From Elusimicrobiota bacterium (GTDB lineage Bacteria > Elusimicrobiota > Elusimicrobia > UBA1565), in NCBI GenBank assembly GCA_016218495.1, contig JACRDU010000150.1, positions 1-38,644 of the forward strand: 38,644 bases of DNA. The letters are read 5' to 3'. The position numbers and the translations under genes are program-made. The notes under the pieces are model-generated. The model worked only from the letters and a program-made list of their open reading frames with translations, did no database searches and was not told where the DNA came from. Position 1 is the stretch's first letter. Each line of letters begins with the position of its first letter. Of this stretch, positions 298 to 8,236 are shown piece by piece.

Positions 298-372
298 GCG
301 CTCATAGCTCAATGGATCGAGCGTCAGCCTGCGGAGCTGAAGATCCAGGTTCGATTCCTGGTGAGCGCACCA
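298..372 (+). tRNA. tRNA-Arg, anticodon GCG
   Basis: A full cloverleaf can be drawn. The acceptor stem is GCGCTCA (298-304) with TGAGCGC (362-368), followed by A369 and an encoded CCA (370-372). The D stem is GCTC/GAGC. The anticodon stem is TCAGC/GCTGA around the loop CTGCGGA. The T arm is CCAGG-TTCGATT-CCTGG. The anticodon GCG reads CGC/CGU directly. D-loop position 21 appears to be C rather than the usual A. The gene is intact, but everything 3' of the anticodon loop was supplied by the integrated element, because the same 50 bp recur at 8140-8189. Confidence 0.93.
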
Positions 373-475: not shown

Positions 476-1441
476 ATGGACGTGCCGGGCATCGTCGCGC
501 TGAAGCCGGAAGCTCTGACCTGGGACACCGCCCTGCGGCTGTTCCTGCTGCGCTGCCGTTCCCAGAACGTGGCCAAGGGGACGCTGGCGCTCTACACCTG
601 GCACCTGGGAGGCATGCGGGCCTTCCTGGAGGCCCAGGGAGCCCTCCTGCCGGCCCAGACCGCGCCGGCGCACCTCCGGGGCCACCTGGAGGCCCGCAGG
701 GCGCGCGGCAACAAGCCCACGACGGTGGACTGCGTCTACCGCATCATGCGCACCTTCTGGGCCTTCCTCCACCGAGACGGCCTGGTGCTGGTGGACCCCA
801 TGACGAAGGTCGAGCGGCCGCGGCGGGAGCGCCGTTTCGCCAAGCCCGTCACCGAGGAGCAGCTGAAGCTCCTGCTCGATGCCATCGACACCGAGGACGT
901 GCTGGGCCAGCGCGACCACGCCCTCATGCTGTTCCTGGCCGACACCGGCCTGCGCATCAGCGAAGCCCTCTCCCTGCGCCTGGGGGACCTGGAGTGGGCC
1001 TCAGGCAGCGCCGTGGTGCTCGGCAAGGGCGGCAAGGAGCGGCGCGTGGCCTTCGGCCAGGTGGCGCGCAAGGCCCTGACGGCCTGGATCCAGCGCCGGG
1101 GCGCCGCCGAGGCGAAGGACCCGCTGTGGGTCAACCGCTACGGGGACCGGATGCGCCGGGACAACTTCAGGCAGCGCATGAAGGTCTATTCGAAGCGCGC
1201 CGGCATCGCCGCCCCGCGCCTCTCCCCCCACGCCCTGCGCCACTTCTTCGCGCTGGCGTTCCTCAAGAACGGCGGGGACGCCATGAGCCTGCAGAAACTG
1301 CTCGGCCATTCCTCCCTCGAAATGGTCCGCAACTATGTGAACATGACCGACGACGAGGCGATTGCGCGCCACCGCTCGGCCAGCCCTTTGGACAAGATGG
1401 GCCCGCTCCCCGGCGAACGGAGGCGGGTGAGGTTGAAGTGA
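476..1441 (+). CDS. int: Tyrosine recombinase/integrase of the island
   Basis: A 321-residue site-specific recombinase that would integrate and excise the island at tRNA-Arg. The N-terminal SAM-like core-binding domain covers about residues 10-110 and the catalytic domain about 122-300. All catalytic positions are visible: R160 (in TGLRISEALSL), K184 (GKGGKERR), H252 and R255 (PHALRH), H278 (LLGHSS) and the nucleophile Y287 (RNYVNM). The length and a short basic tail are normal for XerC/D-like phage and island integrases. A strong ribosome site (GGGAGGGG) precedes the ATG. It lies about 100 bp inside attL and is followed after 14 bp by a small zinc-ribbon gene, so the two may be co-transcribed. 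No excisionase is clearly recognisable. Confidence 0.95.
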   Translation: MDVPGIVALKPEALTWDTALRLFLLRCRSQNVAKGTLALYTWHLGGMRAFLEAQGALLPAQTAPAHLRGHLEARRARGNKPTTVDCVYRIMRTFWAFLHRDGLVLVDPMTKVERPRRERRFAKPVTEEQLKLLLDAIDTEDVLGQRDHALMLFLADTGLRISEALSLRLGDLEWASGSAVVLGKGGKERRVAFGQVARKALTAWIQRRGAAEAKDPLWVNRYGDRMRRDNFRQRMKVYSKRAGIAAPRLSPHALRHFFALAFLKNGGDAMSLQKLLGHSSLEMVRNYVNMTDDEAIARHRSASPLDKMGPLPGERRRVRLK

Positions 1442-3480: not shown

Positions 3481-3690
3481 ATGGGCATGAAGCATGTGCT
3501 CACCCAGGCTGGAAGAAGCCTAAACATCGAGCCCGCCATCCTTGCGGAATGGGAGCGCCGTGGAGACATTCGTGTCCGCGCCATCACGGACGGCTGGTTG
3601 CTCACCGTCAATCGCATGGAATCACGGGCGTCGTCGGCCGTTGCCGCGGCGAAGGCAGGCTCTGAGCCGAGAGGGGCGAAGCCGCACTAA
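3481..3690 (+). CDS. Small HTH-like hypothetical protein (69 aa)
   Basis: The segment LNIEPAILAEWERRGDIRV followed by GWLLTVNR resembles the helix-turn-helix plus wing of MerR/excisionase-type small DNA-binding proteins. If so, this could be the island's excisionase or a regulator. It has no clear ribosome site (starts possible at 3481 and 3487). A long hairpin follows immediately after the stop. Confidence 0.4.
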   Translation: MGMKHVLTQAGRSLNIEPAILAEWERRGDIRVRAITDGWLLTVNRMESRASSAVAAAKAGSEPRGAKPH

Positions 3691-3695
3691 AACAA

Positions 3696-3736
3696 TTCAC
3701 CCGCGCGATCCTGGGCAGGATTCCCGCGCGGGTGAA
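3696..3736 (+). terminator. Long hairpin between two island genes
   Basis: A 12-bp perfect stem, TTCACCCGCGCG (3696-3707) with CGCGCGGGTGAA (3725-3736), is extended by an inner 5-bp stem ATCCT/AGGAT (3708-3712 with 3717-3721) around a 4-nt loop, leaving a 3-nt bulge. It starts 5 bp after the stop at 3690 and ends 12 bp before the ATG at 3749. It could be a terminator without a U-run, or a control hairpin in the leader of the next gene. Confidence 0.5.
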
Positions 3737-3748
3737 GGGACAACGAAC

Positions 3749-4132
3749 ATGAATAGATTAGCAGATGAATCCGAGAATGCCCAGCTCAGGCTCCTCAACG
3801 GGAGGTCCGTCGGTCACATCGACGGGGAAACGGCGCGCCTCAGGGTCAAGCGTGGGCGTCACTTCTTTTGGAAGAAGCGCGGCTACTCGGTCGACGACCA
3901 CGTCCTCCGAACCATGCAGCGCGCCGGCATCAAGGAAATCGTCTTCGACGATTCGCAGCTTGGCCGTGAGTTTCGCATCCCTCTGGACCGCTTTCTCGAT
4001 GTCGCCGAGACCTTTGATTGCGGCTTCGGTCAGAAGTGGTGTGCCCATGAATGCCACTACGACGCCGCCGAGCTCCCCGACCGCCCCGACGATCAGCTCG
4101 ACCTTTTCAGCGGAGCGCCCCTCAGCGCATGA
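3749..4132 (+). CDS. Hypothetical protein of the island (127 aa)
   Basis: Start ATG 3749, with GAAGGGA as a plausible ribosome site. The first 60 residues are basic (LRVKRGRHFFWKKRGYSVDD). The middle is acidic and helical. A cysteine/histidine cluster (CGFGQKWCAHECHYDA, residues about 91-106) could bind a metal. The tail is acidic (DRPDDQLDLFSG); the QLDLF stretch resembles a bacterial sliding-clamp-binding motif (QL[SD]LF), so a link to the host clamp is possible. No family recognised. Confidence 0.55.
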   Translation: MNRLADESENAQLRLLNGRSVGHIDGETARLRVKRGRHFFWKKRGYSVDDHVLRTMQRAGIKEIVFDDSQLGREFRIPLDRFLDVAETFDCGFGQKWCAHECHYDAAELPDRPDDQLDLFSGAPLSA

Positions 4133-4463
4133 CCCATTTTCGTTTCCATTCGCGGCGCCCCGGCGTTCGCCGCCCCATGTCGTCAGTAGCCCGGGTCTGG
4201 GAGAAGCCACCCCTACGAGAGTGTGCAGTGGCCGCATTACCGACAATGGCAAAAGACTCGAGCAACGCGTCGACGGCGACCGAGCGAACGGGGTAATCAG
4301 GGCAGACGTGCCGTTAAATGCGCGGCAGTGTGCAGGGCAGTCGGGCACTGAACCGCGGACCAGGGCGGCAGCCATGTCGGGTTCGGCAGCGGGCAGCAGA
4401 CGCGGGCCGTGGGGCATACCCCAGGGAATGGTCGGGCATTGTCCGGAAAGACAGGGAGCGGGA
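4133..4463. other. Gap without a supported gene
   Basis: 331 bp. A GC hairpin GCGGCG/CGCCGC (4152-4173) follows the preceding stop and may end that transcript. The open frames here are compositional artefacts and I see no convincing promoter. Confidence 0.45.
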
Positions 4464-4739
4464 ATGGAAGACCTCATCGTCCATGAATTCGAGAAGAACG
4501 CCCGAGAGCGCGTGCGCGCCGTCGTGAAGGAGTTTAAGGGACGGCTGCTCATCGAGCTCCGGGCCTACTACCCGACCGAGGACGGGCAGTGGAAGCCCAC
4601 GCGGCGCGGCTTGACCCTGGTGGCTGACAAGGCGGGGCCCCTGCTCAAGGCCGCAGAGGCCATAGCGGCAGAAGTCCGACGCATCGAGGCCGAGACTCCG
4701 CATGAGGGCATCGACAAGGCCACCCATGAACAAGGCTGA
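4464..4739 (+). CDS. PC4/YdbC-like single-stranded-DNA-binding protein
   Basis: 91 residues from ATG 4464 (AGGGAGCGGG ahead). The core FKGRLLIELRAYYPTEDG, then QWKPTRRGLTLV and a C-terminal helix, matches the PC4 (transcriptional coactivator p15) fold: a curved beta-sheet with a K-G-x-x-x-x-x-R-x-(F/Y/W)Y signature followed by W-x-P-(T/S)-x-x-G-I/L. Bacterial and phage members bind single-stranded DNA or RNA and are involved in transcription, replication or recombination. A 35-residue charged N-terminal helix precedes the domain. The stop overlaps the next gene by 14 bp. Assignment is from the motif pattern. Confidence 0.75.
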   Translation: MEDLIVHEFEKNARERVRAVVKEFKGRLLIELRAYYPTEDGQWKPTRRGLTLVADKAGPLLKAAEAIAAEVRRIEAETPHEGIDKATHEQG

Positions 4740-6958: not shown

Positions 6959-7414
6959 ATGGCGACTGCGAAAGAAGTTACTAAGCTGTTCATGTCTTGG
7001 GCGAACCGCGATGGGGACCTCATCACGAACCTCAAGATGCAGAAGCTCCTCTACTACGCTCAGGCGTGGCACCTCGTCAACTATAACAAGCCGCTTTTCC
7101 CGGACCCCATCCAGGCATGGGACCTTGGCCCCGTAATCCCGTCAGTCTATCGGGATCTTCGAGAATTCCGCGCCGGGGCCATCGCATATAAATCTAAAGG
7201 CGATGAGGAAAAACACTTCACCCGAGAACAACTCTCATATCTGAAAGAATTCTATGCGATGTTCATAAAGTTTTCCGCACACGAATTAGTGAACATGAGC
7301 CACTCTGAGACTCCGTGGATGAAGGCCCACACCCAAGGGGCGAACATGGAAATTAGGACGTCAGACATGAAGACCTTCTACTTGGACCTCTATCGTCGGC
7401 GGAAGCACCAGTAG
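6959..7414 (+). CDS. panA: Panacea-domain (DUF4065) antitoxin
   Basis: 151 residues from ATG 6959 (MATAKEVTKLFMSW). The sequence ITNLKMQKLLYYAQAWHL, followed by PLFPDPIQAWDLGPVIPSVY, is the hallmark of the Panacea/SocA-like domain. In the family this domain is the antitoxin half of PanAT modules, which neutralise very different toxins by direct binding and often help mobile elements defend against phages. Here a toxin-sized gene starts within its stop codon, and a near-consensus promoter drives the pair. Codon use and GC are lower than in the flanking chromosome, consistent with recent transfer. The N-terminal extension seen upstream in this frame is not needed. Confidence 0.88.
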   Translation: MATAKEVTKLFMSWANRDGDLITNLKMQKLLYYAQAWHLVNYNKPLFPDPIQAWDLGPVIPSVYRDLREFRAGAIAYKSKGDEEKHFTREQLSYLKEFYAMFIKFSAHELVNMSHSETPWMKAHTQGANMEIRTSDMKTFYLDLYRRRKHQ

Positions 7415-7851
7415 TGGGGAAATCCAAACGCCATTTTACAGCAAGCGAATCCGCCCCTCCGTCCTCAAAGCTGGCAACTGGGTCTGTCCCAATTAATAAA
7501 CTCCACCCGATTTTTTCGTTTCGCTACCTGGATCACGACCACAACCGTTTCGGTGTCCACGCAATCAGAGATACCGAGGAATGGCGCCGCCTGACAAAGC
7601 AATTGCGGCAGATAAGCCAGATGGAGTGGGAAAGGATAAAACAGAGCGGGACTCAGTTTCGAGCTCACGAGATTAGCGAAACCAAACGCTCCCACCCTCA
7701 GCACATCGGCAAGCTACCGCCTATTTTTTCCGAGTTCGTCCCATTTCAATTCAAGGCATTCGACGAATGCAGAATTGTCGGCTTCTTTGATGCGCGCGCT
7801 ATTTTCAATATCGTTTGGATTGACCGAGAGCACGCCATCTATCCGGACTGA
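7414..7851 (+). CDS. Probable toxin partner of the Panacea antitoxin
   Basis: 145 residues. The start is a GTG (7414) that shares its first base with the antitoxin stop, so the two are translationally coupled. Recognisable blocks are FSFRYLDHDHNRFGVHAI near residue 30, a helical WRRLTKQLRQISQMEWERIK, and the C-terminal IVGFFDARAIFNIVWIDREH-AIYP. The pattern FSF-YLD near the N-terminus and F-IVW-D--H--YP at the C-terminus is what I recall for small proteins encoded next to Panacea genes. The toxic activity cannot be told from sequence. Confidence 0.7.
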   Translation: MGKSKRHFTASESAPPSSKLATGSVPINKLHPIFSFRYLDHDHNRFGVHAIRDTEEWRRLTKQLRQISQMEWERIKQSGTQFRAHEISETKRSHPQHIGKLPPIFSEFVPFQFKAFDECRIVGFFDARAIFNIVWIDREHAIYPD

Positions 7852-7907
7852 AGGGGAATCCCCCGCACGAAGCACACTCCGAACGCGCGCGTAGTATTAC
7901 ACTCATC

Positions 7908-7935
7908 TTGACGCCCGGAGCATCCCTGGTATGAT
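7908..7935 (+). promoter_or_regulatory. Strong promoter reading into the pseudoknot RNA
   Basis: TTGACG (7908-7913), a 16-bp spacer, and TATGAT (7930-7935) with the extended TGG just before it. The predicted start is about 7942, which is the first base of the pseudoknot stem. No coding frame follows before attR. Confidence 0.7.
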
Positions 7936-7941
7936 CCCGGT

Positions 7942-8024
7942 GCTCTCAGTCCAGTCCCGGGCGTAGCCAATTCCTGGCCCCTGGTGCAGCCGCCTTCGGG
8001 TGACTGAGAGCCACCGGGGGCCAG
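7942..8024 (+). ncRNA. Candidate pseudoknot RNA at the right end of the island
   Basis: Two long helices interleave as an H-type pseudoknot. Stem A is 10 perfect bp (7942-7951 with 8002-8011). Stem B is 13 bp with one G-U pair (7974-7986 with 8012-8024). The 3' arms are adjacent, so the helices could stack coaxially. The 15 nt between B5' and A3' contain a canonical C-UUCG-G tetraloop hairpin (about 7991-8001). A strong promoter starts exactly at stem A. Further hairpins follow (GCGAT/ATCGC 8048-8067; GGGCGGG/CCCTCCC 8074-8094, one mismatch), so the transcript may reach about 8095. No known RNA family matches by eye. Confidence 0.6.
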
Positions 8025-8064
8025 TTCTTTGGGCTTGAACGAGCCAGGCGATACGGGATGAAAT

Positions 8065-8142
8065 CGCTATACTGGGCGGGCAAAGGGCCCTCCCGGTGAA
8101 GGCTCTCCGACGGAGCACTGCGCGGCTGGCACCGCTATACTG
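8065..8142. repeat. Pair of 10-bp direct repeats beside attR
   Basis: CGCTATACTG occurs at 8065-8074 and again at 8133-8142; the second copy crosses into the attachment core. They may be integrase arm-binding sites or stray promoter-like boxes (each contains TATACT). Confidence 0.35.
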
Positions 8143-8189
8143 CGGAGCTGAAGATCCAGGTTCGATTCCTGGTGAGCGCACCAACTTCC
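8140..8189 (+). repeat. attR: 50-bp direct repeat, right copy (tRNA-Arg 3' remnant)
   Basis: Identical to 329-378. It contains the anticodon-loop-to-CCA half of tRNA-Arg without its 5' half, so it is a remnant of the original gene displaced by integration. Chromosomal sequence resumes after it. Confidence 0.9.
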
Positions 8190-8236
8190 CCGCCCTGGCG
8201 TGCCCGCGGCGCGCGGGCTATCCTCAATAGGCCCCC

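What the first reader, a model, noticed from the sequence alone, without database searches (positions are those of the whole stretch)
7908..8094. Promoter-driven H-type pseudoknot RNA next to attR
Two long interleaved helices (10 perfect bp, 7942-7951:8002-8011; 13 bp with one G-U, 7974-7986:8012-8024) with abutting 3' arms and an internal cUUCGg hairpin form a textbook H-type pseudoknot. A good promoter (TTGACG-N16-TATGAT with extended -10) predicts a start at 7942, the first base of the first helix. This coincidence is hard to explain by chance. No reading frame follows. It could be a regulatory or decoy RNA of the island, an RNA partner of the toxin-antitoxin pair, or an RNA involved in mobility.
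Basis: partly seen in the sequence, partly recalled or inferred. Interest (0 to 1): 0.78.

Follow-up and report, generated by a model that had tools for sequence, protein, structure and literature searches.

The report
Conserved pseudoknot RNA in integrating elements
Mobile DNA elements that insert into tRNA genes of Elusimicrobiota bacteria carry, at the end opposite their integrase gene, a previously uncatalogued RNA whose knot-like shape has been kept by matched mutations and which starts exactly at its own promoter, probably as the leading part of the transcript that makes integrase once the element has popped out as a circle.

Summary
Observation confirmed. Both helices are exactly as described, and this is the only pseudoknot of that size in the window. 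DNA and covariance-model searches of 341 genomes of the phylum found 11 loci in 10 genomes; two carry Elusimicrobia names. Both helices covary: 14 of 23 pairs change on both sides, 0 of 500 shuffles do as well. In 10 of 11 loci an unconstrained pseudoknot search starts helix 1 five or six bases after a -10 box (the eleventh in the alignment), so the RNA should start base-paired. No Rfam family matches.

In 10 of 11 loci a tRNA or attR copy lies about 75-115 bp downstream. In three elements complete on one contig the integrase gene starts about 100-200 bp inside the opposite end, same strand. In the excised circle the promoter would read pseudoknot, attP, then int (345-368 nt), like the 3'-end promoters of ICEKp1 and ICEclc. 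A related element without the pseudoknot has a similar promoter there.

Best reading: a structured leader on a circle-specific integrase promoter, acting in cis. Main rival: a released trans-acting RNA. A toxin-antitoxin role is unsupported. Target-like sequence downstream is explained by DNA arm sites, not a guide. No transcription data exist.

The parts
7908..7935 (+). sigma70-type promoter TTGACG-N16-TATGAT with extended -10 (TGG)
   Evidence: a -10 box at the same distance from helix 1 in the relatives, TG-extended in 9 of 11
7942..7951 (+). helix 1, 5' arm; 7942 is the predicted transcript start
   Evidence: 97% of cells paired, 7 of 10 pairs changed on both sides across 11 loci
7974..7986 (+). 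helix 2, 5' arm
   Evidence: 88% of cells paired, 7 of 13 pairs changed on both sides
7991..8002 (+). small UUCG hairpin inside the helix-2 loop (overlaps the first base of the helix-1 3' arm); the tetraloop varies among relatives
8002..8011 (+). helix 1, 3' arm
8012..8024 (+). helix 2, 3' arm, abutting the helix-1 3' arm
8025..8139 (+). stretch from pseudoknot to attR: right arm of the attachment site (DNA sites); no intrinsic terminator found
8065..8074 (+). CGCTATACTG, direct copy of the attR core boundary 8133-8142
8105..8115 (.). CTCCGACGGAG, arm motif close to att; a CGTCGAG counterpart lies at 405-411 in the left arm
8140..8189 (+). attR, 50-bp exact copy of the tRNA-Arg 3' part
298..372 (+). 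tRNA-Arg(GCG) gene; attL is 329-378
476..1441 (+). tyrosine-recombinase integrase gene, 345 nt downstream of 7942 in the predicted excised circle

Best explanation
The feature is the 5' module of a conserved transcription unit at the attR-proximal end of tRNA-integrating elements of Elusimicrobiota. A sigma70-type promoter starts an RNA whose first nucleotide is already paired in helix 1; about 83 nt fold into an H-type pseudoknot with abutting 3' arms, and no intrinsic terminator was found before the arm sites and att. In the integrated state this transcript runs into attR. After excision the two ends join, and the same promoter would read pseudoknot, attP, then the integrase gene about 350 nt downstream, giving a circle-specific integrase transcript as with P3'end of ICEKp1 or Pcirc of ICEclc. 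The pseudoknot most likely works in cis on this transcript, either by sealing its 5' end against decay or, more speculatively, by acting on RNA polymerase as an antiterminator (like putRNA or canT) so that it passes attP. Shown by sequence: structure, covariation, promoter spacing, position and orientation. Inferred: transcription, start site, circle transcript, cis function.
For: 11 loci, both helices covarying, 0/500 shuffles. Helix 1 starts 5-6 nt after the -10 box in ten loci by an unconstrained search and in the eleventh by alignment. Elements complete on one contig (window, G161, G230) have int just inside the opposite end, same strand, with 345, 368 and 364 nt from predicted start to int in the circle. 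In G228, G232 and G234 RNA and integrase ends lie at the same tRNA type. The G219 element of the same integrase clade has a TGGTAAAAT box before its attR tRNA but no pseudoknot. Precedents: PMC13023037, PMC2892462, canT of Tn916 (PMC11658703), HK022 putRNA (PMC9378689).
Against: No transcript data. In most relatives a complete tRNA would lie between pseudoknot and int in the circle, and its processing would cut the pseudoknot off the int message. L030 has the RNA with no tRNA or att found downstream on its contig. In G159 and G164 the RNA stands before tRNA-Arg without a recognisable element or clade integrase. No classical terminator was found that an antiterminator would have to overcome; hairpins in the left arm lack U-runs and most are individually not significant.
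Confidence: 0.5

Rival explanations
1. A stand-alone trans-acting small RNA of the element (about 85-200 nt): made from its own promoter, released at attR or by RNase P at the downstream tRNA, and acting on other RNAs or on a protein (element regulation, immunity, host take-over). Its place at the element's end would be a cargo position.
For: Own promoter and self-contained fold; complete tRNAs downstream would release it; L030 lacks an att or tRNA downstream on its contig.
Against: Position next to attR, reading towards it, in 10 of 11 loci; no conserved single-stranded target region was tested; no terminator of its own found in the window.
Confidence: 0.33
2. The inverted repeats act as DNA: a cruciform, replication origin or binding site of the element.
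For: The stretch next to it carries DNA arm sites; one related contig has phage-type replication genes.
Against: G-U pairs are used in both helices, and a promoter with fixed spacing precedes the first helix; both point to RNA.
Confidence: 0.05
3. The RNA guides or assists the integrase: sequence after the pseudoknot copies the anticodon arm of the target tRNA, as a guide loop would.
For: Own-target copies better than chance in the window, G161, G166 and G234, weaker in the tRNA-Ala copy of G231.
Against: Not found in the other five tested; matching copies lie in the left arm, outside the pseudoknot RNA, and also in the G219 element without the pseudoknot, so DNA arm sites explain them; the recombinase is of the tyrosine type.
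Confidence: 0.04
4. RNA partner of the neighbouring Panacea-domain toxin-antitoxin pair, for example an RNA antitoxin.
For: It follows the second gene on the same strand; its 5' end is complementary over 11 of 12 bases to 7822-7833 in that gene, near what chance gives by my estimate.
Against: No relative of the pair on the other RNA-bearing elements compared; a single pseudoknot of about 83 nt, not short tandem repeats before a toxin gene.
Confidence: 0.02

Closest known systems
P3'end of ICEKp1 and Pcirc of ICEclc (circle-specific integrase promoters; PMC13023037, PMC2892462)
   Same: Promoter at the end opposite int, facing outwards, reading into int once the ends join; int next to the tRNA on the same strand.
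   Different: Those papers do not describe a conserved pseudoknot RNA; in ICEKp1 the start lies 15 bp from the junction, here about 200 bp before the att core.
canT of Tn916 (PMC11658703) and HK022 putRNA (PMC9378689), cis-acting antiterminator RNAs
   Same: Mobile-element or phage leader RNA; canT acts after excision.
   Different: No sequence comparison with either was made here beyond Rfam; antitermination is untested for this RNA.
GOLLD and ROOL RNAs, and the int-alpA motif (recalled from memory)
   Same: Structured RNAs linked to phages, mobile elements, tRNA genes or integrase genes.
   Different: No Rfam 15 family matches; this RNA core is only about 83 nt and a simple H-type pseudoknot.
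Type III toxin-antitoxin RNAs (ToxI-like)
   Same: Pseudoknot RNA near a toxin-antitoxin pair.
   Different: Single, larger pseudoknot downstream of the pair; not tandem short repeats upstream of the toxin gene.
IS110 bridge RNA (PMC11208160)
   Same: Non-coding RNA at the end of a mobile element.
   Different: Here the recombinase is a PF00589 tyrosine integrase; target-like sequence is a DNA arm repeat present on both sides of att.

Membership tests
Any Rfam 15 family | Match at or above the gathering score | tested here: not met
   Only two tRNA genes in the window; 7880-8200 gives only weak matches far below gathering scores
H-type pseudoknot RNA (structural kind) | Two interleaved helices, both supported by compensatory change | tested here: met
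   7 of 10 and 7 of 13 pairs changed on both sides, 0/500 shuffles
Circle-specific integrase promoter (P3'end/Pcirc type) | Outward promoter at the end opposite int, co-directional with int across attP | tested here: met
   Three elements complete on one contig
Circle-specific integrase promoter (P3'end/Pcirc type) | int transcript starting there in the excised state | not testable with these tools
   No RNA data held
Cis-acting antiterminator RNA (putRNA/canT type) | Suppresses termination downstream in cis | not testable with these tools
   Needs a terminator-reporter assay
Cis-acting antiterminator RNA (putRNA/canT type) | A terminator to overcome between RNA and int | tested here: inconclusive
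   Hairpins in 8 of 10 left arms at similar positions but without U-runs and mostly not above shuffles
Type III toxin-antitoxin RNA | Short pseudoknot repeats in tandem before the toxin gene | tested here: not met
   One pseudoknot only, downstream of the gene pair
IS110-type bridge RNA system | IS110-family recombinase | tested here: not met
   Integrase matches PF00589 only
int-alpA RNA motif | Match to its covariance model | not tested
   Recalled from memory; I did not confirm that it is in the Rfam copy used, and a paper search for it found nothing

The most novel reading that the evidence does not exclude
The pseudoknot is a compact state-dependent RNA switch: a cis-acting processive antiterminator folding at the first transcribed base, which lets RNA polymerase cross attP (often holding a whole tRNA) and the int leader only when the element is circular, so that integrase for re-integration is made mainly after excision.
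Probability: 0.18. Interest if true: 0.8.

Novelty: new variant of a known kind. Interest (0 to 1): 0.6.

Why it matters
It adds an RNA family with strong covariation evidence, absent from Rfam 15, at the recombination end of integrating elements in a phylum with little experimental work. It suggests that circle-specific integrase promoters can carry a conserved RNA module, which makes the question of how an excised element switches integrase on directly testable with a small reporter. It also shows that a pseudoknot plus promoter spotted by eye can be verified by comparative genomics.

Tried and rejected
(1) RNA guide: post-pseudoknot copies of the target anticodon arm looked like a guide, but matching copies occur in the left arm and in an element without the pseudoknot; rejected as unnecessary. 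A first, gapped version of the test was mostly uninformative, and the ungapped version was designed after seeing the sequences, so its p-values are somewhat optimistic. (2) The basic C-terminal integrase tail RRxVRLK as a possible RNA-binding mark: shared by clade integrases from genomes where no RNA was found; dropped. (3) Weak DNA hits L024-L027 are short matches without the structure; L041-L044 and L088-L099 score far below the family; viral-contig pattern matches are not members. (4) Of 22 pattern matches among named genome contigs only the two Elusimicrobia contigs are members. (5) 73 viral contigs with related integrases show no convincing RNA in the stretches held. (6) Control searches in other phyla could not be run because a genome handle is needed as centre. 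(8) Complementarity of the RNA 5' end to 7822-7833 is near chance level.

Full report
What is there. No other H-type pseudoknot of this size exists in the window; simulated sequence of the window's composition gives about 0.03 per window. Rfam has no match. The island runs from attL at the tRNA-Arg(GCG) gene (329-378) to attR (8140-8189), an exact 50-bp repeat, with a tyrosine integrase at 476-1441.

Is it conserved? A DNA search of 341 genomes of the phylum gave two clear relatives, in G228 and G231, with compensatory changes in helix 1. A covariance model from three sequences found eight more loci. A second model from all 11 found no further members, with a wide score gap (2e-23 versus 7e-4). 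Two of the contigs carry names, both 'Elusimicrobia bacterium', so I take the host phylum to be Elusimicrobiota. On the 11-sequence alignment 92% of cells pair and 14 of 23 pairs change on both sides, with 0 of 500 shuffles reaching either; slid structures fall to about 50% or less. Both helices contribute seven such pairs each. G-U pairs occur in both helices, which points to selection as RNA.

Where does it start? In ten of 11 loci an unconstrained pseudoknot search places helix 1 five or six bases after a -10 box (TAnnnT in ten loci, TAAAAA in G230), TG-extended in nine. The eleventh (G159, whose helix 1 has mismatches) shows the same spacing in the alignment. A sigma70 transcript would thus begin paired. 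From general knowledge of RppH and RNase E, a 5' end without unpaired bases is protected from 5'-end-dependent decay; that step is inference here.

Where does it sit? In ten of 11 loci a tRNA gene or tRNA-derived att copy follows: an Arg-GCG fragment in the window; complete Cys, Ala, Gly (two) and Arg-CCG (four) tRNAs on the same strand; and a tRNA-Pro copy read on the other strand in G230. In three elements both ends lie on one contig (window, G161, G230), and the integrase, 40-51% identical to the window's, begins about 100-200 bp inside attL on the strand of the RNA. In G228, G232 and G234 the RNA end and an integrase end are on separate contigs but share the tRNA type, which is suggestive, not proof. 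L030 is an exception without att or tRNA downstream on its contig. G159 and G164 show the RNA and tRNA-Arg without a recognisable element; these may be relics.

The stretch between pseudoknot and att. I first saw copies of the target's anticodon arm here and considered a guide RNA. The copies are better than chance in several elements, but matching copies lie in the left arm too, 54-89 bp from att in six of seven elements tested, three of them in elements where no shuffle of 400 did as well together with the pseudoknot-free G219, and a CTC(C)GACGAG-like motif flanks att on both sides. These are best read as integrase or accessory-protein sites in the two attP arms. The pseudoknot lies outside them.

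What it does. When the element excises, the promoter would read pseudoknot, right arm, attP, left arm and int, 345-368 nt downstream in the three complete elements. This is the layout of circle-specific integrase promoters in ICEKp1, ICEclc and ICEEc1, where mapping and reporter assays showed a 3'-end promoter driving int after excision (PMC13023037; Pcirc in PMC2892462). The G219 element, of the same integrase clade, has a TGGTAAAAT box about 120 bp before its attR tRNA but no pseudoknot, against about 205 bp in the window, as if the pseudoknot were a module placed after the promoter; this rests on one element. Cis-acting RNA is a known means for mobile elements to pass terminators after excision (canT of Tn916, PMC11658703; HK022 putRNA, PMC9378689). 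I therefore favour a cis role on the circle transcript (0.5), without being able to choose between 5'-end protection and antitermination. The strongest objection is that most relatives have a complete tRNA between pseudoknot and int, which processing would cut out; this favours the main rival, a released trans-acting RNA (0.33).

Limits. No transcript data, one phylum, 11 loci, and many contig ends close to the elements' ends. Controls in other phyla could not be run. A pattern scan of named genome contigs found members only in Elusimicrobia contigs, but an exact pattern misses diverged ones.

Noticed in passing
window 8065-8074, 8133-8142, 405-411, 8105-8115; arms of L069, L074, L209, L211, L212, L215: Both arms of the attachment sites carry element-specific direct repeats resembling the target core, and a CTC(C)GACGAG-like motif close to att: likely integrase or accessory-protein sites.
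   Followed up: partly
window 6959-7851: Panacea (SocA-like) antitoxin-domain protein followed by a 145-aa protein matching phrog_8366 of unknown function, with only a weak PADLOC match to NsnC: a probable toxin-antitoxin or defence pair.
   Followed up: partly
window 3765-4739: C-terminal part matches PC4, a single-stranded DNA-binding / transcription coactivator domain; the true start codon is probably well inside this ORF.
   Followed up: no
window 8116-8189: The window's attR holds only the 3' part of the tRNA, while most relatives have a complete tRNA downstream of the RNA.
   Followed up: yes
L030: The contig with an RNA copy away from att encodes a DnaB-like helicase and a weak O-like replication initiator match, and shares a protein family with window 3542-4132: phage- or satellite-like replication module.
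   Followed up: partly
L209:505-9301 (G219): Complete element at tRNA-Gly(CCC) with the same integrase clade and a similar promoter near attR but no pseudoknot.
   Followed up: partly
L068 and L073 (G164, G159): Pseudoknot RNA directly before tRNA-Arg(CCG) between apparently ordinary chromosomal genes, without a recognisable element: relics or kept RNAs.
   Followed up: partly
L070 (G166): Genes upstream of the RNA look like phage tail genes by eye; no family search was made.
   Followed up: no
L208, L211, L213, L215: Several contigs end within a few hundred bases of the integrase gene of this clade, perhaps because of variable or multi-copy elements.
   Followed up: no
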